Part shown: in pieces, positions 50,496 through 64,000 of the stretch
Layout of the letters: each line of letters opens with the position of its first letter
Position numbering within the stretch: position 1 is the first letter of the stretch
Assembly (NCBI RefSeq): GCF_002056795.1
Contig: NZ_CP020104.1
Location: 4,041,001-4,105,000, forward strand
Source: Spirosoma aerolatum
GTDB taxonomy: Bacteria; Bacteroidota; Bacteroidia; Cytophagales; Spirosomataceae
DNA: 64,000 nucleotides
Direction: 5' to 3'
Notes under the pieces: model-generated
Seen by the model: only the letters and a program-made list of their open reading frames with translations
Databases searched by the model: none
Told to the model about the DNA's origin: nothing
Position numbers and translations under genes: made by a program

Positions 50496-52754
50496 TTACT
50501 TCATGATTTCGCCTAATGCGTTATCATACAGCCCTTTCGCATCCGACACCGACATAACCGTTGCAGTATCGATGCTGAAATCGCCATCGGTTACGGTACC
50601 CAGAAATTGGAACGGCAGAATGCTATCTTCCAGATACCCAACGACATGCTGCTGCTGATCAGGCGAAACCGAAATGACTACCCGGCTCTGGCTCTCACCA
50701 AACAGGAACGCATCGGTCCGGTAGCGCGTATCGGTTTCAATCGTGAATCCTTTATTACCGGTCATGGCCGACTCCGCCAGCGTAACAAACAACCCTCCAT
50801 CCGATACGTCGTGTGCCGACTGAAGCCAGCCGTTCCGAATCATCGTTTTGATACCTTCCTGCACACGCCATTCAGTTTCAAAGTCGAAATAGGGAGCGGG
50901 CGATGCTTTGATGCCCCGGTACGAATACAGGTATTCCGACGACGCGATATCGCTGGTCGATGGCCCAACCAGATAGATCAGATCCCCAGTCGCTTTGAAA
51001 TTCAGTGTTGTCTGGTGCACTGGATTTTCCATAAGCCCAAGCATACCGATTGTCGGTGTTGGGAACACCGGGCCATCATCGGAGCTTTGGTTGTAGAAGC
51101 TCACGTTTCCACCCGTTACCGGCGTACTGAACCGACGGCAGGCTTCACCCATTCCCTGTACCGCTTCCACAAACTGCCAGTACACTTCCGGCACGTAGGG
51201 ATTTCCGAAATTGAGGTTATTGGTTACAGCCAGGGGTTCTCCGCCCGAACAAACAATGTTCCGACAGGCTTCGGCCACAGCGATCATGGCGCCCTGACGC
51301 GGGTTCGCATTCACGTATCGGCTGTTGCAATCGACCGTAATCACAATGGATTTATCGGTTTCTGGCAGACCGGGGCCTTTTACCCGTACGACAGCGGCAT
51401 CCGATGGTGCATTGGTGCTCCGGTTGGCCGTTCCCACCATTGAGTCGTATTGCTCGTATACCCACTTTCGTGAGCAGATATTCGGGTGCGACAACAGGTG
51501 TTTGGCTACGTCGGCAATCTCCGACGTTTCGATGTCATCGACGTCCGACGGATCGAACTTGGCGTACTCTTTTATATAAGCCGGTTCTTTGTATTCACGC
51601 TGATACTGCGGAGCACCGCCACCCAGTACCAGATCGTAGGCGGGGACATCGGCCACCAGTTCGCCATAGCGGTAAAAATGCAATCTGCCCACTCCTTCAG
51701 CGTCTGGGGGGGTTACCTCGCCAATCTGGGCACAGTTCAGATCCCACTTGTCGAAAATAGCCTGAATGACCGACTCCTTGCCTTTCTCGATAACCACCAG
51801 CATGCGCTCCTGCGACTCCGACAGCAGAATCTCAAACGGGGCCATGTTGGGTTGCCGGGTCGGCACTTTGTCGAGATCGATAATCATACCGTGTTCGCCT
51901 TTGGCACTCATTTCCGAAGTCGAGCAGATGATCCCAGCCGCACCCATATCCTGAATCCCGATTACGTAGCCAGTAGCGATAATTTCGAGGGTGGCTTCGA
52001 GCAGGAGTTTTTCCATGAAGGGGTCCCCTACCTGCACCGCAGGCAGTTTGTCGGTCGAAGCGGCCGTGATATCTTCCGAGGCAAAGGTAGCGCCGTGGAT
52101 ACCGTCTTTACCCGTAGCCGACCCCACAATAAACACCGGGTTACCGACCCCATAGCTGGTTGCCTTGGCTACCTTTCCGACTTCGACAATCCCGGCCGAG
52201 AAGGCATTCACGAGTGGGTTGGTATTGTAGCACTCATCAAAATAAATCTCCCCGCCAACGGTTGGGATACCAAATGCATTGCCGTAATCGCCGATACCTT
52301 TCACAACACCGCGCAGCAGACGACGGGTTTTGGTCAGGCTCAGGTCGCCAAACCGGAGCGAATTGAGCTGGGCAATTGGGCGAGCCCCCATCGTAAAAAT
52401 ATCCCGGTTGATACCGCCCACCCCGGTAGCCGCCCCCTGGTAGGGTTCCAGCGCCGACGGGTGGTTGTGCGATTCGATCTTGAACGAACAGGCCAGCCCA
52501 TCGCCAATATCGACCAGACCGGCATTTTCTTCCCCAGCTTTGGCCAGCATCCGTTCCGAATCGCGCGGCAGGGTTTTAAGCCAGACGATCGAATTTTTAT
52601 AGGAGCAGTGTTCGGACCACATCACCGAGAAGATACTCAGTTCGGTAAAGTTGGGTTTCCGCCCCAGAATCTGGGCAATGCGGTCAAATTCATCCGGTAA
52701 CAGGCCCAATTTCCGGGCGGTTTCAACAGTAGGGAGCGTTTCGAGGGTATCCAT
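50496..52754 (-). CDS. purL: phosphoribosylformylglycinamidine synthase subunit PurL
   Basis: 752 residues, the small type that works with PurQ and PurS. LLPDEFDRIAQILGRKPNFTELSIFSVMWSEHCSYKNS is split over the start; SEHCSYK is the ATP/substrate motif, followed by KIESHNHPSALEPYQGAATGVGG (region also cut here) and two AIRS-like halves. It makes FGAM from FGAR with ATP and ammonia in purine synthesis. The ATG directly abuts a family A hairpin. Antisense frames of up to 404 codons lie across it and are shadows. Confidence 0.95.
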   Translation of the reverse strand: MDTLETLPTVETARKLGLLPDEFDRIAQILGRKPNFTELSIFSVMWSEHCSYKNSIVWLKTLPRDSERMLAKAGEENAGLVDIGDGLACSFKIESHNHPSALEPYQGAATGVGGINRDIFTMGARPIAQLNSLRFGDLSLTKTRRLLRGVVKGIGDYGNAFGIPTVGGEIYFDECYNTNPLVNAFSAGIVEVGKVAKATSYGVGNPVFIVGSATGKDGIHGATFASEDITAASTDKLPAVQVGDPFMEKLLLEATLEIIATGYVIGIQDMGAAGIICSTSEMSAKGEHGMIIDLDKVPTRQPNMAPFEILLSESQERMLVVIEKGKESVIQAIFDKWDLNCAQIGEVTPPDAEGVGRLHFYRYGELVADVPAYDLVLGGGAPQYQREYKEPAYIKEYAKFDPSDVDDIETSEIADVAKHLLSHPNICSRKWVYEQYDSMVGTANRSTNAPSDAAVVRVKGPGLPETDKSIVITVDCNSRYVNANPRQGAMIAVAEACRNIVCSGGEPLAVTNNLNFGNPYVPEVYWQFVEAVQGMGEACRRFSTPVTGGNVSFYNQSSDDGPVFPTPTIGMLGLMENPVHQTTLNFKATGDLIYLVGPSTSDIASSEYLYSYRGIKASPAPYFDFETEWRVQEGIKTMIRNGWLQSAHDVSDGGLFVTLAESAMTGNKGFTIETDTRYRTDAFLFGESQSRVVISVSPDQQQHVVGYLEDSILPFQFLGTVTDGDFSIDTATVMSVSDAKGLYDNALGEIMK

Positions 52755-52842
52755 AAAGAGCGAAAGAGTGAAAGAGCGAAAGAGCGGTTAAAAGAAGGCG
52801 GTTACATTACGCTCATTCACTCTTTCGCTCTTTCACTCTTTA
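52755..52842. repeat. family A hairpin repeat (copy 3), imperfect
   Basis: Left arm about 52755-52786, right arm about 52811-52842, built of GAGCGAAAGAGTGAAAG words. The few mismatches are mostly T/C differences that still allow G-U pairing. The left arm touches the purL start codon. Confidence 0.85.
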
Positions 52843-52890
52843 AATCTGGTCCAAAATTAGGCTTTTTGCCTAAAATTGCCCCGGTATGGG

Positions 52891-52929: not shown

Positions 52930-53014
52930 AGAGAGATGGCAGAGTGGTCGATTGCGTCGGTCTTGAAAACCGAAGACTGTAACAGGTCCGGGGGTTCGAA
53001 TCCCTCTCTCTCTG
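52930..53014 (+). tRNA. tRNA-Ser (anticodon TGA)
   Basis: 85-nt class II tRNA: acceptor AGAGAGA/TCTCTCT, anticodon loop CTTGAAA giving TGA, a long variable arm, T arm GGGGG/CCCTC with loop TTCGAAT, discriminator G; CCA is not encoded. Its 3' end is the probable integration site of the element that follows. Confidence 0.95.
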
Positions 53015-53042
53015 CAAAACCCATCGCAGGGTTACGTAAGAA

Positions 53043-53243: not shown

Positions 53244-53270
53244 ATAGCTCACCAAAATATTGTGAGCTAT
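53244..53270. promoter_or_regulatory. perfect palindrome over the recombinase start codon
   Basis: ATAGCTCAC (53244-53252) and GTGAGCTAT (53262-53270) are exact complements around a 9-nt spacer. The last two bases are the AT of the ATG at 53269. Either a repressor site or an mRNA hairpin that limits recombinase translation. Confidence 0.55.
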
Positions 53271-54546
53271 GTTTCACCTAAATCGAATGCAGATTCTTTT
53301 TAAACTTCGTCGGAATTATCGCGAATCAAAAAAAGGAAAACCTAAACCGGTTGAAGTTGCTATCTACGCCCGAATTACCGTCAATGGCCAGACGGCCGAC
53401 ACATCCACCAACATTAAGATCAACCCCAAGTACTGGAACCAGGCTAAACAGCGAGTCACCGACGCGGCACCGACCGCAGACCAGGACAATGAAACCCTAG
53501 ACCGAATTAAAGTCCGACTCAAAAAAGCCTTCAACCTACTGGACCAGGACGATGCAGAGTTAACACCTGGTCAAGTGCTGGAACTATACCGAGGGAAAAA
53601 GCGGGTAAGGTATTCGATCAGTCAGGTTATCCGCAAGTTTATGGAAGATCAGAAAGATCGAATCAGCGACGATCCTGATGAACTGGCTACGAAAGGCTTT
53701 ATTACCCAGGATACCTACGAAACCAATGATCGATACAACAACAATATCCTGGAATACCTGGGCGATAGTAAGCAGGAACGGGCTTTTATTGAAGAGATCG
53801 ACGAAGCCTGGTTAAATGACTTCAAAAAGTGGGGAAACAAACGATTTGCCACCAACTATCTGGCCAAGCACCTATACCACATCAAACGCCTGGTCGATTT
53901 TGCTGTTCTCAAAAAATACACCCGCACCAATCCGATTGCTCCCTATAAGATCGATACCGAAGAACCCGACCCCGATGAGCTGGTCTTTTTGTCACCGGAG
54001 GAATTAAGGAAACTGCAAACCTTCGACTTTTCCACCCTACCCATTAAACAGGCACGCATCGAGCGGCTGGACCGGGTTCGGGATGCCTTTCTATTTATGC
54101 AGGCTATTGGCACCCACTTAGGTGAATACAACCGTTTTGTGAGTAACCCGGATCAGTCGATCAAGATTACCGATGGCATCTGGTTTGTCAAGAAGAAGCG
54201 GCAAAAGACCAAAAAGTATATGATTGCTCCCTTGAAACCTATTTGCTTTGAACTGGCCACCAAATATGGTGGGTTTTCAAAACTGCCTACCTATTCCCGA
54301 ACCCAGTTTAACGATGGATTGACACTTATATCGGCCTATTTAGGGTTTGATAAGGAACTCACTAGCAAAGCCGCCCGAAAAACGTTTGCTGACCATAATC
54401 TCAATGAAGAAGCAACCGACGTGAACACGACGGCCAAGATGATGGGCTTAAGCTCTACCCAGTACTTAAAGCACTATGGCCATATCGATGAACGACGAAT
54501 GATTCGGGAACTAGGCTTAAAGCCGCAAATTGTCCAGGAGTCATAG
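53269..54546 (+). CDS. tyrosine recombinase / phage-type integrase
   Basis: 425 residues (ATG at 53287, residue 7, is an alternative start). An N-terminal arm-binding domain (VEVAIYARITVNGQTADTSTNIKINPKYWN) as in Bacteroidota integrases, a SAM-like core-binding domain (~120-225), then the catalytic domain. AARKTFADH gives Arg370 and QYLKHYGH gives nucleophile Tyr403. The first catalytic Arg is missing (IGTHLGEYN at ~280-288) and the last His/Trp is replaced (MMGLSS). It is next to tRNA-Ser and oriented away from it. Confidence 0.9.
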   Translation: MFHLNRMQILFKLRRNYRESKKGKPKPVEVAIYARITVNGQTADTSTNIKINPKYWNQAKQRVTDAAPTADQDNETLDRIKVRLKKAFNLLDQDDAELTPGQVLELYRGKKRVRYSISQVIRKFMEDQKDRISDDPDELATKGFITQDTYETNDRYNNNILEYLGDSKQERAFIEEIDEAWLNDFKKWGNKRFATNYLAKHLYHIKRLVDFAVLKKYTRTNPIAPYKIDTEEPDPDELVFLSPEELRKLQTFDFSTLPIKQARIERLDRVRDAFLFMQAIGTHLGEYNRFVSNPDQSIKITDGIWFVKKKRQKTKKYMIAPLKPICFELATKYGGFSKLPTYSRTQFNDGLTLISAYLGFDKELTSKAARKTFADHNLNEEATDVNTTAKMMGLSSTQYLKHYGHIDERRMIRELGLKPQIVQES

Positions 54547-56442: not shown

Positions 56443-56778
56443 CTAAATAAGTGATTTGTTCGATCCGAATAATCGGGAACCTTGTGCCGATGCTGACTGA
56501 ATCGCATTTAATCGCTCCTGAAGAAATGGAGAAATATTGGTCAGTGTATCGATAGATACAGATTGTTTTTGAGGGGATGCCGCAAACAGAGCCGCCAACG
56601 TATTCGTCTTTGATACATCAGTTTGTGTAGCTGGCTGTTGACTCGTGGTTAGGTTCTGCGTCGTTTGCGAAGTTGTCTGAACGGGTTGTTTATTCTTATT
56701 CAGCAACGAATAAATTGCATAGGCAAGGGCAGCAAAGCAAAGAACTAATAGAATCGTGTCTTTCTGGTTTGGTTTCAT
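56443..56778 (-). CDS. small single-span membrane protein with low-complexity linker
   Basis: 111 residues. One N-terminal membrane helix (TILLVLCFAALAYAIYSLL), a Gln/Thr-rich linker (TTSQTTQNLTTSQQPATQT) and a helical C-terminus. Last gene of the minus-strand operon, 18 nt before its terminator. No known family. The anchor-linker-domain layout fits a protein that holds something at a membrane. Confidence 0.7.
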   Translation of the reverse strand: MKPNQKDTILLVLCFAALAYAIYSLLNKNKQPVQTTSQTTQNLTTSQQPATQTDVSKTNTLAALFAASPQKQSVSIDTLTNISPFLQERLNAIQSASAQGSRLFGSNKSLI

Positions 56779-56791
56779 GGTCTTGGTGGTT

Positions 56792-57403
56792 TTAGCTCTT
56801 TTTATTCTTCACAAAAAGCACAATCAATAGGATAGCCAGTACTCCCCAAAGTGAGTACTGAACCAGGCTCAATCGGTCAATTTCCTGATTGGTTTGGTTT
56901 AATACATCTTCCAGTCCGGCAAAATCCGCTTTATATAGCGCGATTTCTTCATTTCGTTTTTCGGTATTGCTTTTCGTCGTATCGATCAGCCCACCAAACA
57001 ACTGACCAACCGTCGATACGGCCAGGCCGATGGCTGTTCCAATACCCGGTAAAGCCGCCGTAAAGGTTCCTACGAGTCCCGATACCGTACGTATATCCGT
57101 AGCCGTATGATCGACGGTATCCGTACTACCCAACTCCTTCAAGGCTTGAGCAATTATCTGTGAACGCTGAATTAAAAGTGTTCTACGACGTTTCAGCCAG
57201 GCCAACCGTTCAGCCGTCGAGTTTCCCGTATAGGGCTGGTTAATTGCTTCAATTAAGGCATTAACCTGTTGGCAACTTTCCGACAATCCAGAAAGCGGAA
57301 CATAGTCAGCCGCCAGGTCTGATTTCAATTTACAGTCCTCATTGATATAGGCAGAATAGAACGGTACTGCGTATTGTGGAAAACCCGTCGCATTCAGTTG
57401 CAT
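56792..57403 (-). CDS. membrane protein with amphipathic glycine-rich core
   Basis: 203 residues. The N-terminal ~100 residues are helical and soluble. A central hydrophobic Gly/Ala stretch (LVGTFTAALPGIGTAIGLAVSTVGQLFGGL) could insert in a membrane. A coiled-coil segment follows, and a C-terminal helix (YSLWGVLAILLIVLFV) ends in KNKKS. No known family. It overlaps no gene but is 3 nt from the next, as expected for one transcript. Confidence 0.7.
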   Translation of the reverse strand: MQLNATGFPQYAVPFYSAYINEDCKLKSDLAADYVPLSGLSESCQQVNALIEAINQPYTGNSTAERLAWLKRRRTLLIQRSQIIAQALKELGSTDTVDHTATDIRTVSGLVGTFTAALPGIGTAIGLAVSTVGQLFGGLIDTTKSNTEKRNEEIALYKADFAGLEDVLNQTNQEIDRLSLVQYSLWGVLAILLIVLFVKNKKS

Positions 57404-57406
57404 AGC

Positions 57407-57904
57407 TCATTTACGTTTAGCCATGATCATTGCAATGACAATGACGATGGCACCAATCAGAATATAGGTCGTATTAATCTGAAAACCAGCCCCACCACTA
57501 CCCCCATTACCTGTATTGGTAGTAGTCAGGTTATTGGTTCCGGTTCCAGGATCAGGCATTGGCGTGCTGTTATCGCTTGTATAGTTATCCCCCAATTGCT
57601 GTTCGTTACTCAAATTCATTTTGCTGAGTACGGAATTAGTCGCTAGTAGATTGACGTAGTTACTACTCAAGAAATTGGGATCAAGATGTTCTTTCCACTG
57701 GTTCAGATTCGTAGCCGATTGAACGATTTCATGTCCACCCCAACTACCCAGTGACGTTGAAGCGGTCAAGATCCACACATCATACTTAGCCACATAGCGA
57801 ACCCGCCAGGTATAGGTTTCCGCAACAAATTGAGGATTAAACGGCCCCCCTTCAAAATGACCAGTTACCCAGGTACCCACTATATCACCACTCTTATAGC
57901 CCAT
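57407..57904 (-). CDS. C-terminally anchored protein with Gly/Thr/Asn linker
   Basis: 165 residues. A compact Trp/Tyr-rich N-terminal domain (~1-75, GTWVTGHFEGG, YTWRVRYVAKYDVW), a Ser/Thr/Gly/Asn linker (TGTNNLTTTNTGNGGSGG), one membrane helix (YILIGAIVIVIAMIM) and a basic tail AKRK. No signal peptide is seen. The order domain, flexible linker, anchor, basic tail resembles phage adsorption or minor coat proteins, but I claim no homology. Confidence 0.7.
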   Translation of the reverse strand: MGYKSGDIVGTWVTGHFEGGPFNPQFVAETYTWRVRYVAKYDVWILTASTSLGSWGGHEIVQSATNLNQWKEHLDPNFLSSNYVNLLATNSVLSKMNLSNEQQLGDNYTSDNSTPMPDPGTGTNNLTTTNTGNGGSGGAGFQINTTYILIGAIVIVIAMIMAKRK

Positions 57905-57915
57905 AATCCAAATTG

Positions 57916-58374
57916 TTAAAGTATTCTAGGATAGTTTTGTCTAATCATGTCTCGTAGGCTCCCCGGCGTTACACCGGCCAACCCATGTGGTACTTGTACC
58001 GGTGTGTGCATAAGAGCCTGGTACACCAGCTCCGCGCACGTCCACGCATCCGGCCGCTCACTTCCAAACGGGAGGCCATAGGTCAGGTAGATACTTTTCC
58101 AGTCATAGCCCTTTCCCAGTTGTGACTTTAGGAAGGTTGCCACGTCTGATGTATCGAACTCACCCAGGTCGTATATCTCAAAGTACTGTGGGTACCGTAT
58201 CGTGTTTGTTGTTGGCCGGATCGCTACGCCACCGGTGACTACCCAGCTCGATACAGACATGGCCGCTTCTGGATCGATCAGTTCACAATGAATCCAGTTC
58301 GAGCCGGTAAAACCAGCGATGATCATACCGGGTATATCATTGTCGTGAAACCGATTCTTAAACGCAATCCACAT
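57916..58374 (-). CDS. permuted NlpC/P60 (YaeF/YiiX-like) papain-fold protein
   Basis: 152 residues. NWIHCELID puts a catalytic-type His29 ahead of the Cys, and DAWTCAELVYQA puts Cys113 on the later helix; this His-before-Cys order is that of the permuted YaeF/YiiX group. These act on amide or ester bonds in peptides, cell wall or lipids. Its ATG shares one base with the stop of the metallopeptidase gene upstream (TAATG), so they are coupled. Confidence 0.68.
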   Translation of the reverse strand: MWIAFKNRFHDNDIPGMIIAGFTGSNWIHCELIDPEAAMSVSSWVVTGGVAIRPTTNTIRYPQYFEIYDLGEFDTSDVATFLKSQLGKGYDWKSIYLTYGLPFGSERPDAWTCAELVYQALMHTPVQVPHGLAGVTPGSLRDMIRQNYPRIL

Positions 58375-59360
58375 TAGTTACTAGCCAGTTTTGCAATGTC
58401 CCGCATCAATTTATCCACTAGCGGCCGGATGCGTGAAAACTCCGTTTGCGTCTGATAACAGCCCATTGTTTTGGCGAGCCGTTTGTACTTCTCCTTATGC
58501 AAAAAGGTGTTGGTTATCCCTTTTTCGCGCATTTTGTAATTGACCCACACTTCAAACAGACGCGCCCAAAGCTCGTTGTGTCGAAGCCAGTACGAATCGG
58601 ATTCCCCTTTCTTCACTAGCCCGTCCCGCATTTTATTGTACGAGCCGGTTTGCTGAATGGCCTTGATGATTTCTGTCATTTGATACCGTAATGAGCCTTT
58701 TTTATAGACATTTTTGGTAATCAAACTCGTATCATGGCCATAGGTGAGTGAGCGGTAAAAGCGGTCCTGTTCGACGTAGGTACCAAAGAAATAATCGATG
58801 GCATGGCCGTACTCGTGCGCCAGGGCACCCACCCCACCGGTTTCAATGAACTTGGTTTTTTTATCGACATCGATCTTTTGGCCGGTCAGGGGATTGATGA
58901 TGTAGCGTTTGTAGCGCGTGAGGTTAATCATCATCGTATCCGGCTCAAAATGCCCGGCCGCGTGCTGGTAGCCACGGGCACCAAACGCAATGCCGATGGT
59001 CCCACTGAAGCCAATATTGGTGTAGCCTACGATTTTGCTTAGGTCCGACAACGCAATGACCAAAGCAGCCAGGTAATTGTAGGCATCATCGTTGGTGAGC
59101 CACCGGCCGAACTCAATGCCCTTTAAGCGGAACTTGAGCACCGCCCGGTTTATATCGACGGTTGAAACCGCCCGATTGGTTTTGGAAAAACCCCGGTACA
59201 CCTGGGTAAATCCGTTTTCATCCCAGTAGTCATTTAGCCGGCTACCAACACTAATCCGGGTGTTGGTATCGACGCTGTATTTTTTACTCCCAAAGGTCGG
59301 AACCAGACCAAGCCGGGTTTCAATTTTACTGAGTTTGGCGATGGGTTTCTTAAGGATCAT
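58374..59360 (-). CDS. HExxH metallopeptidase-like protein (LPD-type)
   Basis: 328 residues from ATG 59360; the TTG 6 nt earlier is less likely. GALAHEYGHAID gives His182-Glu183-x-x-His186, a zincin site, with WLRHNELWARLFEVWV (a possible third ligand Glu) 80-90 residues later. This spacing and sequence resemble the large polyvalent-protein associated metallopeptidase domains of phages and conjugative elements, here as a separate protein. No signal peptide. Could cut a capsid or host protein; target unknown. Confidence 0.75.
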   Translation of the reverse strand: MILKKPIAKLSKIETRLGLVPTFGSKKYSVDTNTRISVGSRLNDYWDENGFTQVYRGFSKTNRAVSTVDINRAVLKFRLKGIEFGRWLTNDDAYNYLAALVIALSDLSKIVGYTNIGFSGTIGIAFGARGYQHAAGHFEPDTMMINLTRYKRYIINPLTGQKIDVDKKTKFIETGGVGALAHEYGHAIDYFFGTYVEQDRFYRSLTYGHDTSLITKNVYKKGSLRYQMTEIIKAIQQTGSYNKMRDGLVKKGESDSYWLRHNELWARLFEVWVNYKMREKGITNTFLHKEKYKRLAKTMGCYQTQTEFSRIRPLVDKLMRDIAKLASN

Positions 59361-59421
59361 AACCAAATAATATTTTTTACCATGGGCGGTGCAGCAGCTG
59401 CGATCGATTTAGAAAATTTCG

Positions 59422-59952
59422 TCAAAAGCCGTTTTTGAACAGATTTATTGCGGGGGGCAAGAGAACCCCCACAACCACCCCAATGGACAAAGCCCCGATA
59501 CGAGCGGTCCAACCCAGCCGCTTGGCATCCCGGATGATCGATCCGAAATTTGATACCTTGCTTTGCGCCTGGTTCACGGACTGAGTAGTGGCTTGGGTAG
59601 TCGCAATGGTTTTCTGAATGGTCCCTTTAACTGTTTGCAAACTATCTCGAAGTCTATTAATCGTCGAATGACTTTTGGCTTCAAGCTGACTGATGGCTTG
59701 TTCACAGTCGATCAGTTGGGCTTGTTGTGCCGCAATCACCTGGTCAGCATCCGAAAACGAAAGCGCAAGCAGCGTCCTACGCGCCAGGTCTAATTTTTGG
59801 TATTCGCTCCGGGAAATGGTTGTATCGATAGAAAGCGGCCGAGCCGGTAGCGAAGAGAGATTGGGCAAGGGAATCCCCTGCCCAACTACCGACAGACTAA
59901 TTAACCCACTAAATACAATTCCCACGCAGAGTAATGAAAGAAAGCGTATCAT
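59422..59952 (-). CDS. exported coiled-coil protein with C-terminal membrane helix
   Basis: 176 residues. A signal peptide (LLCVGIVFSGLISLSVVGQG), a coiled coil (~55-140, DQVIAAQQAQLIDCEQAISQL, RLRDSLQTVKG), and a C-terminal membrane helix (IGALSIGVVVGVLLPPAI). Paired with the next coiled-coil membrane gene by a 4-nt overlap. The two together look like a periplasm-spanning pair, as in phage spanins, but no homology is visible. Confidence 0.72.
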   Translation of the reverse strand: MIRFLSLLCVGIVFSGLISLSVVGQGIPLPNLSSLPARPLSIDTTISRSEYQKLDLARRTLLALSFSDADQVIAAQQAQLIDCEQAISQLEAKSHSTINRLRDSLQTVKGTIQKTIATTQATTQSVNQAQSKVSNFGSIIRDAKRLGWTARIGALSIGVVVGVLLPPAINLFKNGF

Positions 59953-60335
59953 CTGACTTGATTTTGAATGGCCTGTAAGCGTTTCTTTTGCTGATTGTAT
60001 TGATCCAGCTTTACAGCCGTCTGTTTATCCATTTCGCGCTTAATCGCCTGGTAGCGGCCATTTATGAGGCTTACTGAGTCAGATAGATCGAGTAATCCAG
60101 CATCTAGCCTGTTAACGGTACCGATAGCGGCCTGTAAGTCCGTTTTCGTTGTTTTCAATTCAGCATCAACGATATGCAATTGGGCTTGCACCTGCCGGGT
60201 TTCGGCAAGTGCCTGGTTTAGTTTGGCAGACAATTGGTTCGGCCGGAACACTTCGGTGTAGACGATGTAAGCCAATATCAGCAGTACGCAGACCGGCGTG
60301 AGCTTGCTGGTTAGAAAGTCCAGTACAGCTCTCAT
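59949..60335 (-). CDS. N-anchored coiled-coil protein
   Basis: 128 residues. One membrane helix (LTPVCVLLILAYIVYTEVF) followed by ~95 residues of coiled coil with regular hydrophobic heptads (LSAKLNQALAETRQVQAQL, TKTDLQAAIGTVNRL) and a basic end. Overlaps both neighbours by 4 nt. Likely a partner of the coiled-coil protein at 59422-59952. Confidence 0.72.
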   Translation of the reverse strand: MRAVLDFLTSKLTPVCVLLILAYIVYTEVFRPNQLSAKLNQALAETRQVQAQLHIVDAELKTTKTDLQAAIGTVNRLDAGLLDLSDSVSLINGRYQAIKREMDKQTAVKLDQYNQQKKRLQAIQNQVR

Positions 60336-60523
60336 CTCTTTTTCTTGCTGTTTCTATCGACGTACTTAAAACTTTGCTTAAGGGCTGACTTCCAGCCCAG
60401 ATTATAGACCTTCACGGTTTTGGTCGTGTGCCCGGATTCCGAACGAATTTTCTTCGCATGTTCGACGGCCTTAACCAGTCGAGCGGTTTGTTTGCGAAAG
60501 GCAGGAGATAATTTACGTGCCAT
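60332..60523 (-). CDS. very basic 63-residue protein
   Basis: 63 residues with about 20 Lys/Arg/His and few acids (ARKLSPAFRKQTARLVKAVE, ending DRNSKKKR). No zinc motif, no membrane helix. Size and charge suit a nucleic-acid-binding or DNA-condensing protein. Tightly packed between an SGNH hydrolase gene and a coiled-coil gene. Function inferred from charge only. Confidence 0.65.
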   Translation of the reverse strand: MARKLSPAFRKQTARLVKAVEHAKKIRSESGHTTKTVKVYNLGWKSALKQSFKYVDRNSKKKR

Positions 60524-60536
60524 GATGTAGAAAAAT

Positions 60537-61937
60537 TTAAGTGGCTGATTGAGTCGTTGGTTGTTGATCGAGTAGGGTTTTGACCACCCCGATTCGTTTA
60601 CCCAGCCCGAACGCGACCAGTGCTAAGAGGATCAGAGCCGGTACAATTTTTCGGGCAACCAGCAGCGCAATAACGATCCCGACCAGAGCCGCCCAAATCG
60701 CCGTCCCTCCAGAGGGCACATAAGCCCCGACATTGGCCAGGCTAAACACCGTTCCATTCGCTACGTTGCTGGTATAGTCCGCACTCAGTGTGGATGGCTT
60801 GCCCGATGTTTTCCCCGCAATGGCCAGAAACGCATTCGCCCATAATTCCCCATAGGCCGTAAAATCCGACGGTTGCAAATGCACCTTATCGGTTCGATTG
60901 GCCCTAGCCGCCCGAAGTGCCAGTAGGTCAGCCCCGACGTAGTTAGCCGAATTGGAGCCGATCACATCCTGAGCACCAGCCCGGATGTGGCTCACGTCCA
61001 CGCTGTTCGCGCCTTCGCCAGCATCTTCGAGGGCAATTAAAATGGGTAGGGTGGGAAGGTTGAACGTGGTGCGGGTATGGTTCAGTACGTCGTTAAACTG
61101 ATCCTTGAATTGCTGACGCGTGCTCACGTCACGGTCATTGACCCCGTGGTGAATCAGGATCGCCCGGATACCCGTTACCGGAATATACTTCGACAGCGTT
61201 GCTTTCAACGTCTGATAGGGCATTCCCTTTTTGTAGTCGATAAAACCATGCTCAAAGGGCTGGTTGTTAATGACCTTCCAGTTCTGTTGAATATTCGAGC
61301 CACCAAAGGCCGTATTGAACAGCAGCACCGGCACGCCTAAACTCGCAGCGAGTTTATTGCCGAACGGCCCCCAGGCATAGGGACCAGAGCCGTAGGGTGC
61401 AATCTTTGAGGTAGCCGAAAGGGGCGAAAAGGTGAAGGGTAAGTTTTCCTCTTTGGCATCGGTATCGTTGTAGTTGACCGACCGAACGCGCGGATCTGGA
61501 TTGTCGTACAGGGCATCGGCCGTGCCTTGCGCAACCGAATGGCCAAACACGACAAACACATCACCGACCCCTACCCGCTCCATCGACGTGCTACTGATGA
61601 TCATGGAACCTTGCTTGATCTCCACTTTCATGGAATAGTCCCCACCGGTGAGCCGGATCGCTCCCTTACAGTGACCCGATTGTATCGTTCCTAATTCAAC
61701 TTGGTTAACCGCTTTTCCCCCTTGCACGGGACTAAACGAGATGAGCACGGTTGCCCCTTCGGTGTTGTCGGATTGAATGTCAATCGGTACCAGGGCTTTA
61801 TTATCCGAATCCCGTTGGTAGACGATGTTTTGATACGGGAGAACAATATGCGGAGTGATGTTTGCAGACATGACGTATTTCGTATGGGTGAGTAGCAGGG
61901 TAAACACAGCGACCAGGCCCAATCGGACGGTTGCCAA
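60537..61937 (-). CDS. SGNH/GDSL hydrolase (sialate O-acetylesterase-like) with C-terminal membrane helices
   Basis: 466 residues from a TTG at 61937, which keeps a signal-like N-terminus (LGLVAVFTLLLTH); ATG at 61871 is the alternative. SGNH blocks: VFGHSVAQG (Ser134 in the long form), GGSNIQ, HHGVNDRD (the GxND block) and DKVHLQPSDF (Asp and His). Blocks I, III and V are intact, so an esterase acting on acylated glycans is likely. The last ~80 residues hold two membrane helices, unusual for the family. Confidence 0.82.
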   Translation of the reverse strand: MATVRLGLVAVFTLLLTHTKYVMSANITPHIVLPYQNIVYQRDSDNKALVPIDIQSDNTEGATVLISFSPVQGGKAVNQVELGTIQSGHCKGAIRLTGGDYSMKVEIKQGSMIISSTSMERVGVGDVFVVFGHSVAQGTADALYDNPDPRVRSVNYNDTDAKEENLPFTFSPLSATSKIAPYGSGPYAWGPFGNKLAASLGVPVLLFNTAFGGSNIQQNWKVINNQPFEHGFIDYKKGMPYQTLKATLSKYIPVTGIRAILIHHGVNDRDVSTRQQFKDQFNDVLNHTRTTFNLPTLPILIALEDAGEGANSVDVSHIRAGAQDVIGSNSANYVGADLLALRAARANRTDKVHLQPSDFTAYGELWANAFLAIAGKTSGKPSTLSADYTSNVANGTVFSLANVGAYVPSGGTAIWAALVGIVIALLVARKIVPALILLALVAFGLGKRIGVVKTLLDQQPTTQSAT

Positions 61938-61949
61938 GCGTGAATTCGT

Positions 61950-62618
61950 TTACGATAGTGAATCCAGCAGCCCGTTTTTCCCTACCAGTTTGAGAATATA
62001 ATTACCTGTTTCCGTGGCTTTTGCCTTCGCTTCACTTAAGACACCGGCAAAGGTTTTCGCTTTAATTTTGTAGAAGTACCCAGCGTTATACCGAAACACC
62101 ACTTTATCCCACCGGATCAATCGTTCGGTCAAGGATAGAAAATCCGTGCTTTCGTCGATGAGCCGTCCCAGGAGCATAGCCCCGATTAACAGGTTGATTT
62201 CAGGGTTTATGACATCCGAAGCCACTAGCTTGGTATTCCCTGCCTTTTCATCGCCCAGGTATCGGAGCTTGCGAATATTGACCAATTTCGTGCCCAGGTA
62301 CCCACCAAGTACATCTAACTGCTCATCACTCACCCGGTTGTCTTTATTGTCCAGGTGAATGGTCGTTACGCAGGTATCGGGCGTGAGCTGCATCAGACCC
62401 ACCGCGCCGGCACTACTTTTGGCCGAAGGATTCCCGGCTGACTCGATAAAACAAAAAGCCTCAATGACGGCCGAAGGCACATTGGTAAGCTGGGAAGCCT
62501 GTTGGATGAAGGTGCCGTATTGATTACGGATCGTCCGTACAATATCCATGTTTCCAACAGCTTGCGAGGCTGTATAGTACATTTCGGCCGTCATAGGGGC
62601 GCGGCTAATCAGTGTCAT
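61950..62618 (-). CDS. lytic transglycosylase (SLT domain)
   Basis: 222 residues, no clear signal. AFCFIESAGNPSAKSSAGAVGLMQLTP is the SLT signature, with catalytic Glu59 and the GLMQL stretch (given in parts here: FCFIESAGNP and GAVGLMQLTP). The C-terminal part is helical with VVFRYNAGYFYKI, the typical AYNAG-like motif. It cleaves the peptidoglycan sugar backbone. In phages such enzymes open a local hole for entry or assembly. Confidence 0.88.
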   Translation of the reverse strand: MTLISRAPMTAEMYYTASQAVGNMDIVRTIRNQYGTFIQQASQLTNVPSAVIEAFCFIESAGNPSAKSSAGAVGLMQLTPDTCVTTIHLDNKDNRVSDEQLDVLGGYLGTKLVNIRKLRYLGDEKAGNTKLVASDVINPEINLLIGAMLLGRLIDESTDFLSLTERLIRWDKVVFRYNAGYFYKIKAKTFAGVLSEAKAKATETGNYILKLVGKNGLLDSLS

Positions 62619-62622
62619 ACCG

Positions 62623-62763
62623 TTATACCGTTACTTTTTGAAAATCAATCTCCCGATTCTCTTTCTGCCAGCGTGCCCGGTTTTTCAGATACCAGGCCGA
62701 TAGGCCACCCACCACGGCCGCACCGAGCAGAAGCGGGATGGATTTCTTTAGTTTCTTATTCAT
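62623..62763 (-). CDS. 46-residue single-span membrane protein
   Basis: ATG 62763 (MNKKLKKS), after which the hydrophobic stretch IPLLLGAAVVGGLSAWYL forms one helix; a basic and acidic tail follows. The longer frame from 62811 reads into the previous gene. The start overlaps the stop of the upstream gene by 8 nt, so they are coupled. Confidence 0.62.
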   Translation of the reverse strand: MNKKLKKSIPLLLGAAVVGGLSAWYLKNRARWQKENREIDFQKVTV

Positions 62764-63001
62764 GGGTAGTTTGTGGGGTTTCTTTTTGGGCATCTTTGGC
62801 AAACAGGCCATTTAAGAAGGTACCAATACCGGTAATCATCAGGTGCCAATCGTGCATGACATACGCCTTGTACAGAATCGGCACGGCCAGGCCCAGCGCG
62901 GTAATCGTCGTTCGGGGATTGTGCAGAGCCGCAAACACAAAATCCGACCAGACGCGTAGGAGCCGGTTTGCTTGCGAGGTTTTCGTTTTGCGCGGTGCCA
63001 T
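62756..63001 (-). CDS. holin-like small membrane protein
   Basis: 81 residues. A basic start (APRKTKTSQANRLLR), two moderately hydrophobic segments (~22-50 and ~52-70: TITALGLAVPILYKAYVM; HLMITGIGTFLNGLFA), and a polar tail. Size and layout fit class II holins, and a lytic transglycosylase is two genes downstream. By-eye assignment; it could be another virion membrane protein. Confidence 0.6.
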   Translation of the reverse strand: MAPRKTKTSQANRLLRVWSDFVFAALHNPRTTITALGLAVPILYKAYVMHDWHLMITGIGTFLNGLFAKDAQKETPQTTHE

Positions 63002-63002
63002 G

Positions 63003-63107
63003 TTACTTATTGATCTCCCGAATGTTTAGGTAGAGTTTGGTTAAATCAGCGACGATAGCGACCACGGCCGCTATGATCAGAATGTCCCGTAATCTAATCT
63101 TCTTCAT
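63003..63107 (-). CDS. 34-residue membrane peptide
   Basis: ATG 63107 (MKKIRLRD), one helix ILIIAAVVAIVADLTKLYL, then a short tail. Below the usual size cut, but it fills the gap precisely: it overlaps the upstream gene by 14 nt and ends 1 nt before the next start. Confidence 0.55.
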   Translation of the reverse strand: MKKIRLRDILIIAAVVAIVADLTKLYLNIREINK

Positions 63108-63369
63108 GGTTATCGTCCGGTTGAGTCCCCTGTGTCGCGATATACTTCTTGGTAATCCCCCACTCGCGGTACACCCGCATACACAGCCAGGCAATCGACA
63201 ACAGAGAAATGATAATCGTGAGTAGCCCGTTGATGGTGGCCATGCTGAACAGGGGGATAAGGTTGAGTGGAATAGCCAGGCCTGTGCAGATACCACCGGC
63301 GATGTCTACTTCGTCGGGCTGTTCGGCCAGCTCAAATAGGAGCCAGAATCGTTGGATCAGCAGTTTCAT
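63094..63369 (-). CDS. small two-span membrane protein
   Basis: 91 residues. Two hydrophobic helices (GGICTGLAIPLNLIPLF and GLLTIIISLLSIAWLCM), a basic bend (RVYREWGITKKY) and an acidic tail (DDNHEED). Its ATG is 1 nt past the TAA of the upstream gene. No family recognised. Confidence 0.65.
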   Translation of the reverse strand: MKLLIQRFWLLFELAEQPDEVDIAGGICTGLAIPLNLIPLFSMATINGLLTIIISLLSIAWLCMRVYREWGITKKYIATQGTQPDDNHEED

Positions 63370-63370
63370 A

Positions 63371-64000
63371 TTAGTAGGGCGTTACAACAAAGTCATCCAG
63401 GTAGATTGATTCGCCACCAGCACCCCAGCCAGATCCGTTAATTTCGATGTAGAGGTGAGTAGCCCAAAACGGTGCCCGGTAGGGATACGGCATCGTTATC
63501 AGTGTCCAGTCCAGAGCAGCAGCCGAAAGCGTTGTATCGGGCGCTGCGAAGTTTTCAATTCGCTTGAGCGACGGCAAACCGGCCGAATCCACATAAAAAC
63601 CGCCCCCCCAGTTGAACGTATGGTAGAGAATTCCTATTGATGATCCCGGCTTCTTAATCCAGTACTCAAGCCCCAGTAAGGCACCGGGTTTAATCGGCAC
63701 CATCACAGCGATACGTGATTCAGATCCGCCACCAAAAGGCTTGCTCCATTTCAGCGACTGTGTACCTGAATGGAAATAGGTAGGTGAAAGATCCAGGTTA
63801 CTGTTGGTTACGTGCAGGGCATCCGTTCGGCTACCAATCCCAACGCTATCCGCTCGCCAGTGATCAATCACCGAGGCACTCGTAAACCCACCATCCAGCA
63901 ATACATTGGCAGCATCGGATAGGATCAGCGCGTTATTCGTCACTGGGCTATAGCTACGTACGCCTTCGACTTTCACGTTCGCGGCTGCATTGCCCCCAAC
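63371..64000 (-). CDS. carbohydrate-binding-like C-terminal region of a larger protein (partial)
   Basis: The frame stays open from the window edge; a GTG at 63976 is not a convincing start, so the N-terminus lies beyond 64000. At least 209 codons. The pattern FLDGG-like start (VLLDGGFTSASVIDHW), YFHSGTQSLKW, LEYWIKKP, LDWTLITMP and YLDDFVVTPY fits a CBM4/9-type jelly roll. As the first visible gene of the operon it may be the end of a receptor-binding or spike protein. Confidence 0.65.
   Translation of the reverse strand, partial: VGGNAAANVKVEGVRSYSPVTNNALILSDAANVLLDGGFTSASVIDHWRADSVGIGSRTDALHVTNSNLDLSPTYFHSGTQSLKWSKPFGGGSESRIAVMVPIKPGALLGLEYWIKKPGSSIGILYHTFNWGGGFYVDSAGLPSLKRIENFAAPDTTLSAAALDWTLITMPYPYRAPFWATHLYIEINGSGWGAGGESIYLDDFVVTPY

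What the first reader, a model, noticed from the sequence alone, without database searches (positions are those of the whole stretch)
56443..64000. Membrane-rich operon without tail genes: candidate non-tailed prophage module
At least 15 minus-strand genes are packed with overlaps or gaps of a few nt and end at one terminator. About ten products carry predicted membrane helices, several are coiled coil, one is very basic, and the enzymes are a lytic transglycosylase, an HExxH metallopeptidase, a permuted NlpC-like protein and an SGNH hydrolase. No tail, portal, terminase or conjugation gene is visible. Membrane-containing non-tailed phages (tectivirus, corticovirus and FLiP-like types) have this kind of content. 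The capsid and packaging ATPase would have to be beyond 64000, so the class is an inference.
Basis: partly seen in the sequence, partly recalled or inferred. Interest (0 to 1): 0.8.

Follow-up and report, generated by a model that had tools for sequence, protein, structure and literature searches.

The report
Non-tailed membrane-virus-like provirus in Spirosoma
A bacterium carries, neatly inserted next to a tRNA gene, a 31-kilobase dormant virus that appears to build a tailless, membrane-lined particle, and similar elements sit in several related bacteria although its hallmark genes were not matched in the virus collections searched.

Summary
The operon is real and is part of a discrete integrated element. 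On the full chromosome it runs from tRNA-Ser(TGA) (attL 52999-53015) to a 17-bp repeat of the tRNA 3' end (attR 83665-83681): 30,666 bp, 51 genes called by me, tyrosine integrase at one end, HTH repressor at the other; related genomes show the empty site. A capsid candidate (g29) lies five genes further on; two models show ONE jelly-roll, not two, at modest confidence. No terminase, portal, tail tube, relaxase or T4SS gene was recognised (PHROGs 51 of 51 genes, Pfam 49 of 51), apart from stray domain hits told below. Related regions occur in Spirosoma, Fibrella and other families of the order; att sites were found for four of them. ATPase and capsid gave no match in INPHARED or IMG/VR. Best reading: a new group of temperate, non-tailed, internal-membrane viruses, resembling sphaerolipoviruses more than tectivirus, corticovirus or FLiP. 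No virion has been seen.

The parts
52930..53015 (+). tRNA-Ser (TGA), integration target; attL = its last 17 bases (52999-53015)
   Evidence: ARAGORN; repeat
53269..54546 (+). g01 tyrosine recombinase (integrase), 425 aa
   Evidence: Pfam Arm-DNA-bind_5 3.3e-13, Phage_int_SAM_5 1.9e-7, Phage_integrase 0.0052 below cut-off; PHROG integrase 2.8e-8
56443..56778 (-). g05, single-TM small protein (111 aa)
56792..57403 (-). g06, C-terminally anchored membrane protein (203 aa)
   Evidence: relatives in G202, G185, G113, G112
57407..57904 (-). g07, C-terminally anchored membrane protein (165 aa)
   Evidence: PHROG 1128 7.6e-14; no Pfam support
58374..59366 (-). g09, HExxH metallopeptidase-like with LPD1 domain (330 aa)
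   Evidence: LPD1 4.4e-14; matches in 10 of 16 related regions, short pieces in G112 and G102
59422..59952 (-). g10, two TM segments (176 aa)
59949..60335 (-). g11, N-terminal TM (128 aa)
60332..60523 (-). g12, very basic small protein (63 aa, net +16)
60537..61937 (-). g13, SASA/SGNH-type carbohydrate esterase with C-terminal TM (466 aa)
   Evidence: PF03629 1.7e-11; TM
61950..62618 (-). g14, SLT lytic transglycosylase (222 aa)
   Evidence: PF01464 3.6e-14
62623..63369 (-). g15-g18, four small proteins, three with predicted TM
63371..64000 (-). g19, pectate-lyase-type spike (586 aa); its gene runs on to 65131 in extended coordinates
   Evidence: PF12708 3.5e-13; residues 12-136 match the G202 homologue (36%), no other stretch significantly
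64000..64000 (.). Marker only: the element continues beyond the window to attR at 83665-83681 (extended coordinates). Parts there: g20 lysozyme 65238-65771, g23 66364-66819, g24-g26 66816-68373, g28 68564-68932, g29 capsid candidate 68934-69965 (start probably near 69791), g33 72545-72799, g34 packaging ATPase 72801-73370, g35 73354-74004, g37 74337-74798, g42 76254-76793 (all minus), conserved non-coding 77877-78942, g51 repressor 83174-83563 (+)
   Evidence: details in the full report

Best explanation
It is the structural half of a temperate, non-tailed virus integrated in the tRNA-Ser(TGA) gene of a Spirosoma chromosome. Shown by sequence: discrete element, integrase, att sites, empty site in relatives, packaging-ATPase homologue, no recognised tail/terminase/conjugation genes, relatives at other sites and in other genera. 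Inferred: the integrase inserts and excises a ~30.7-kb circle; g51 keeps it silent; after induction the long minus-strand operon makes a capsid, most likely of the jelly-roll protein g29, around a membrane loaded with the many small anchored proteins; g34 pumps DNA in; g19 (pectate-lyase spike), g13 (esterase) and g31 bind and cut host surface sugars; the two SLT enzymes, g42 and perhaps g08 open the wall for entry or lysis. In size, gene number, jelly-roll type and ATPase it works most like a sphaerolipovirus, but in a bacterium and as a provirus.
For: Boundaries and 17-bp att repeat. Empty site: of four other-genome tRNA loci compared, L064 (G195) has the left flank (518 bp, 94%) contiguous with 66 bp of our right flank (86%), and L067 (G196) with 72 bp (83%); L065 and L066 show the left flank only. 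Same tRNA-Ser site with 15-17-bp repeats in G202, G112, G113; tRNA-Thr in G165. ATPase. Capsid candidate: models from two family members give one jelly-roll at 138-306 / 73-235; the best-ranked solved matches are mostly viral coats. Gene order shared with relatives. No tail/terminase/conjugation genes recognised.
Confidence: 0.77

Rival explanations
1. A double-jelly-roll prophage (tectivirus, corticovirus or FLiP-like); the second barrel is hidden in the unmodelled N-terminus or elsewhere. (A variant inside the same broad class; odds overlap with the best explanation.)
For: The ATPase best matches that of STIV, a DJR virus (STIV's class recalled). A UniRef name of the Fibrella homologue is 'Viral coat protein P2 N-terminal domain-containing' (cut off in the listing). 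The smallest DJR capsid protein has only 239 residues (PMC9719478, section 11), so 270-285 residues is not too short.
Against: Both models place the strands in one barrel. P2_N gave no match at the capsid locus in 10 genomes searched to E 10. FLiP lacks a packaging ATPase (PMC8812541 passage); DJR elements are 10-15 kb, FLiP-group contigs up to 17 kb (PMC5894146).
Confidence: 0.15
2. A tailless virus as described, but g29 is a penton, spike or other minor protein and the true capsid protein is another one, for example a member of the anchored beta-protein tandem g22-g26. (Overlaps with the best explanation except for the capsid assignment.)
For: g26-like and g22-like proteins occur in 9 and 7 of 16 related regions, g29 in 5 (one of them weak) plus a fragment.
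Against: g29 is the only protein without a core membrane anchor that is shared by the four closest relatives and has a capsid-like fold; membrane-anchored SH3-like proteins seem unlikely shell proteins (judgement, not tested; other shared proteins were not modelled).
Confidence: 0.2
3. A filamentous-phage-like element using a Zot-type ATPase and small coat proteins such as g21.
For: Weak Zot match in 4 of 15 ATPases, best 0.0066; g21 is a 69-aa single-TM protein with relatives in 5 of 16 regions.
Against: g34 has no predicted TM segment, best solved match is a packaging NTPase; 30 kb; jelly-roll protein; several wall-degrading enzymes.
Confidence: 0.05
4. A degenerate tailed-phage or genomic-island remnant with no particle of its own.
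For: Tail-type PHROG hits of g19, g20, g31 and others.
Against: Long intact ORFs, similar order in separate insertions, no terminase, portal or tail-tube gene recognised in 51 genes (PHROGs).
Confidence: 0.06

Closest known systems
Sphaerolipoviridae (SH1, HCIV-1; Helvetiavirae)
   Same: 28-31 kb, about 50 genes, single-jelly-roll capsid proteins, packaging ATPase, membrane-protein-rich (PMC12643093, whole text)
   Different: Archaeal, lytic, linear genome with terminal repeats and proteins, two SJR capsid proteins; here bacterial, integrated with tyrosine integrase and att sites, only one SJR candidate found
Simuloviridae / Matsushitaviridae (SNJ1; P23-77, IN93)
   Same: SNJ1 is temperate, has two SJR proteins, a putative ATPase and a rolling-circle Rep, as has the distant G165 element here (PMC12642351, whole text; Rep of G165)
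   Different: 16-19 kb, episomal, archaeal (SNJ1); P23-77 and IN93 as Thermus viruses recalled
FLiP / PhiCjT23 (Flavobacterium)
   Same: Bacteroidota hosts, temperate (PhiCjT23), internal membrane
   Different: PhiCjT23: 7,642-nt ssDNA, DJR capsid protein of 239 aa, dif-type integration (PMC9719478, abstract and sections 6, 9, 11)
Corticovirus PM2-like prophages
   Same: Integrated elements with capsid gene and FtsK-like ATPase (PMC5894146, PM2 section)
   Different: DJR, mostly Proteobacteria; P2_N not matched here
STIV B204 packaging NTPase
   Same: Closest solved relative of g34 by sequence profile
   Different: From a DJR archaeal virus (recalled)

Membership tests
Integrated temperate virus / mobile element | integrase, direct-repeat att sites at a tRNA, empty site in relatives | tested here: met
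   (empty site in 2 of 4 loci compared)
A32/FtsK-type genome-packaging ATPases | near full-length homology to a solved packaging NTPase, Walker A and B | tested here: met
   STIV B204 2.6e-8 over positions 6-167 of 201; next row 1.2e-4 (replicative helicase, positions 5-79); most later rows cover little beyond Walker A, a few (KaiC 4-135, FlaH 7-119, FtsY 6-114) more
Bamfordvirae (DJR: tectivirus, corticovirus, FLiP) | double jelly-roll capsid protein | tested here: inconclusive
   two models show one barrel, N-terminus unmodelled
Corticoviridae-type capsid (Pfam P2_N) | P2_N domain in the capsid protein | tested here: not met
   no match at the capsid locus; 0 of 10 genomes over cut-off, 6 of 10 with sub-threshold matches elsewhere
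Helvetiavirae / Sphaerolipoviridae | two single-jelly-roll capsid proteins | tested here: inconclusive
   one SJR candidate; no paralogue by profile among 53 proteins (51 of the element), next E 0.18; the others were not modelled
Helvetiavirae / Sphaerolipoviridae | vertical barrel orientation, internal membrane, virion | not testable with these tools
   needs particles
Sphaerolipoviridae | linear genome with inverted terminal repeats, archaeal host, lytic | tested here: not met
   integrated provirus bounded by tRNA att repeats in a bacterium
Caudoviricetes | terminase, portal, HK97 capsid, tail tube | tested here: not met
   none recognised; PHROGs 51 of 51 genes, Pfam 49 of 51 (g32 and g51 not given to Pfam), thresholds 0.001-0.05; domain hits with tail or terminase labels in g14, g19, g20, g31, g34, g42
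Inoviridae | Zot-like membrane ATPase and filamentous coat | tested here: inconclusive
   Zot sub-threshold in 4 of 15 ATPases; no TM in g34

The most novel reading that the evidence does not exclude
A bacterial virus lineage built from ONE single-jelly-roll capsid protein together with an A32/FtsK packaging ATPase and an internal membrane. That is the intermediate state that PMC8812541 (passages) implies between a portoglobovirus-like ancestor (single SJR, no ATPase) and the helvetiaviruses (two SJR plus ATPase); it would be a new order- or higher-level lineage spread through several families of Cytophagales.
Probability: 0.3. Interest if true: 0.9.

Novelty: new variant of a known kind. Interest (0 to 1): 0.72.

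Why it matters
Non-tailed temperate viruses are easily missed because their genes match no tail or terminase profiles. Here elements of 27-32 kb with defined ends and a packaging ATPase were traced in three genera, and ATPase relatives in several families of one order, although searches of IMG/VR and INPHARED with the ATPase and capsid gave no match. If the capsid is one single jelly-roll, the group bears directly on how the two kingdoms of jelly-roll dsDNA viruses arose, and named host species exist (Fibrella aquatilis, F. forsythiae) in which it can be tested.

Tried and rejected
Double jelly-roll: not supported by the models; kept as a rival. P2_N family search in 10 genomes: no match at the capsid, so the UniRef name of P0012 is not used as evidence for the best reading. 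Viral-contig scans with the capsid alignment, the ATPase (single sequence and alignment A4), g23 and g09: 5 scans, none confirmed. INPHARED tblastn with ATPase and capsid, PLSDB with ATPase: no match; g09 does hit tailed phages (19 records, best-ranked 28% identity). Genome-contig scan with A3: only the two Fibrella loci. I suspected the 189-216-aa proteins of G165, G153 and G039 to be capsid homologues; profile comparison gave no support. The iterative g29 row drifted into esterases through a fused remnant ORF in G185; that row was discarded and the profile (first round) used. Rows dropped from the profile used: G185 (fusion), G041 (1,779-aa ORF, weak), G357 (weak, low-complexity ends). G041 was fetched but left out of the 16 printed regions. 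Sphaerolipovirus or P23-77 capsids were not in the listed fold rows; this excludes nothing. tRNA search at lowered thresholds in the conserved non-coding region gave only uncontrolled low-threshold calls; Rfam gave nothing at E <= 1 there. g23 and g44 alignments and g45 against solved structures: nothing usable. Paper searches with no paper holding all terms: Spirosoma + double jelly-roll, Singelaviria + Bacteroidota, tailless + prophage + jelly-roll + Bacteroidota, Varidnaviria + Cytophagales; the other six searches listed papers of which I opened five. I saw no description of this group in those listings and openings; the library lacks most subscription papers and preprints.
Full report
WHAT IS THERE. 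The window is G000:C1:4041001-4105000 of a 7.96-Mb single-contig genome. I fetched the 60 kb from 4093501 on and numbered them in extended window coordinates (window = L002 + 52500 = L003 + 72500). The minus-strand operon of the finding (g05-g19, 15 genes) goes on in the same style to 82969, with one gap of 1,066 nt and several of 55-145 nt; in all 45 of 51 called genes are on the minus strand and summed gene length is 27,528 of 30,683 bp. The gene calls are mine, made from ORFs by packing, not by a gene finder.

PARTS BEYOND THE WINDOW (extended coordinates, minus strand unless said). g20 65238-65771, lysozyme-like (PF01464 4e-8; PHROG 196 1e-35). g21-g23 65784-66819: 69-aa TM protein, SH3-like TM protein (PF08239 4.2e-7), and the signature TM protein g23. 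g24-g26 66816-68373: C-terminally anchored proteins. g28 68564-68932: HExxH protein, M48 0.009 below cut-off. g29 68934-69965: capsid candidate. g33 72545-72799: DUF4248-like 1.5e-5, below cut-off. g34 72801-73370: ATPase. g35 73354-74004: acidic TM protein with relatives in G202, G113, G112 and G259. g37 74337-74798: ribbon-helix-helix (4.9e-5). g42 76254-76793: M23 peptidase (1.1e-29). 77877-78942: non-coding. g51 83174-83563 (+): HTH repressor-like (8e-12). attR 83665-83681.

BOUNDARIES. A tRNA-Ser(TGA) lies at 52930-53015, a tyrosine integrase follows at 53269. The last 17 bases of the tRNA are repeated at 83665-83681, just after g51. Four tRNA loci from other genomes were compared: in L064 (G195) the left flank (518 bp, 94%) runs straight into 66 bp that are 86% identical to what lies right of attR in our genome, an empty site; L067 (G196) shows the same over 72 bp (83%); L065 and L066 match on the left only. 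The unit is 30,666 bp. GC content does not stand out (0.485 against 0.495 for the first 52.9 kb). Related elements sit at the same tRNA with 15-17-bp repeats in G202 (30.9 kb), G112 (27.2 kb) and G113 (29.6 kb), and at a tRNA-Thr in G165 (32.0 kb); att sites were not sought in the other regions. That genus g1 is Spirosoma is inferred from the name of P0009; Spirosoma is in the same order.

PACKAGING ATPASE. g34 (189 aa) alone hits Pfam only below cut-offs: nSTAND_NTPase5 6.8e-6, Pox_A32 0.0075, Zot 0.013. Over 15 relatives, AAA_14 and Zot match 4 each, Pox_A32, nSTAND and CbiA 3 each. They align with a Walker A lysine, a Walker-B-like acidic pair and a downstream His. The profile of that alignment finds the STIV B204 genome-packaging NTPase first among 177,635 distinct PDB sequences (two distinct sequences, E 2.6e-8 and 3.2e-8, positions 6-167 of 201). 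The next row is a replicative helicase at 1.2e-4 (positions 5-79); most later rows cover little beyond the P-loop, a few (KaiC, FlaH, FtsY) somewhat more.

THE WIDER FAMILY. The g34 sequence hits 20 of 222 family genomes at E <= 0.001, many weakly. Profile A4 hits 16 of 390 order genomes, in 12 of 130 genera and seven families, at E <= 1e-6 with 8 candidates scored per genome; the surroundings of most of the new ones were not looked at. Profile A5 hits only our genome of 395 drawn over the phylum at E <= 1e-6, again with 8 candidates scored. In 16 related regions compared, the ATPase is in 15, the signature TM protein g23 in 11, g09 in 10 (two of them short pieces), the anchored protein g26 in 9, an integrase in 8, g28 in 7. 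The regions were picked by ATPase or capsid match, so the ATPase count is partly by design; they are 9-55 kb long and not all are complete elements; G183, G119 and G173 share little beyond the ATPase. The G165 element carries a rolling-circle Rep (PF23343, 1.2e-9); none was recognised in ours, where g44 (relatives in G113 and G259, not found in G202) and the 1.07-kb non-coding stretch 77877-78942 are the best guesses for replication functions.

HOW IT PROBABLY WORKS. Shown: integration, hallmark ATPase, enzyme domains, no recognised tail or conjugation genes. Inferred: excision to a circle, relief of g51 repression, late expression of the minus operon, assembly of a jelly-roll shell over a membrane carrying the anchored proteins, ATP-driven packaging, surface-sugar recognition by g19 (residues 12-136 conserved, the rest not, between G000 and G202), g13 and g31, and wall opening by g14, g20, g42 and perhaps g08.

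COMPARISON. Sphaerolipoviruses have 28-31 kb, about 50 genes, two vertical SJR capsid proteins, a packaging ATPase and a protein-rich inner membrane (PMC12643093, read whole). Our element fits in size, gene number, ATPase and the one barrel seen, and departs in host, integration and the missing second SJR. DJR elements are 10-15 kb, FLiP-group contigs up to 17 kb (PMC5894146, abstract and two sections), PhiCjT23 is 7.6 kb with a 239-aa DJR protein (PMC9719478, abstract and three sections). [quoted passage not shown] an SJR-plus-ATPase virus without the duplication would be that intermediate. I cannot claim this: a second SJR may be hidden among unmodelled proteins.

VERDICT. Observation largely confirmed, prediction of a packaging ATPase borne out, class shifted from double to (probably) single jelly-roll. 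A new group of provirus, probably non-tailed and membrane-containing; no particle has been seen.

Noticed in passing
window (extended) 78094-78710, L003:5594-6210: Non-coding stretch more conserved between G000 and G202 than most neighbouring genes (a core of roughly 130 bp nearly identical, mismatches without codon phase 33/35/36), with tRNA T-arm-like sequences on the minus strand; fragments of it recur near a tRNA-Met in G201. Possible origin or decayed tRNA cluster.
   Followed up: partly
window 52752-52845: A ~90-bp interspersed repeat just upstream of the tRNA-Ser, matching on both strands, with tens of matches in many of the 36 same-genus genomes searched.
   Followed up: no
window (extended) 83719-87707: Very AT-rich pair of plus-strand genes (782 and 545 aa; GC about 0.30) directly right of attR, probably another foreign insertion; no PHROG match for the first, one weak (7.8e-4) for the second.
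   Followed up: partly
L003:15209-16217: Two overlapping minus-strand ORFs that look like an IS630-type transposase pair (label recalled, not searched).
   Followed up: no
L056:9785-13961 (G185): Remnant of a related element in which the N-terminus of the g29 homologue is fused to the esterase gene; g06, g07, g08 and g09 relatives remain.
   Followed up: partly
window 58374-59366: g09 matches, at about 28-29% identity, parts of proteins of tailed phages, some annotated as LPD5-domain proteins, including Stx-converting phages: a stand-alone form of a domain found in larger phage proteins.
   Followed up: partly
L055:7248-10888 (G357): A related region in another family whose predicted structural proteins carry very acidic and arginine-rich low-complexity stretches and a recurring Phe-x-Gly-like motif seen by eye, perhaps processing sites.
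   Followed up: no
L034:11538-15440 (G165), L028:15761-17446 (G113): Cargo differs between elements: two DNA methylases and a rolling-circle Rep in G165, a Fic-domain gene in G113.
   Followed up: no
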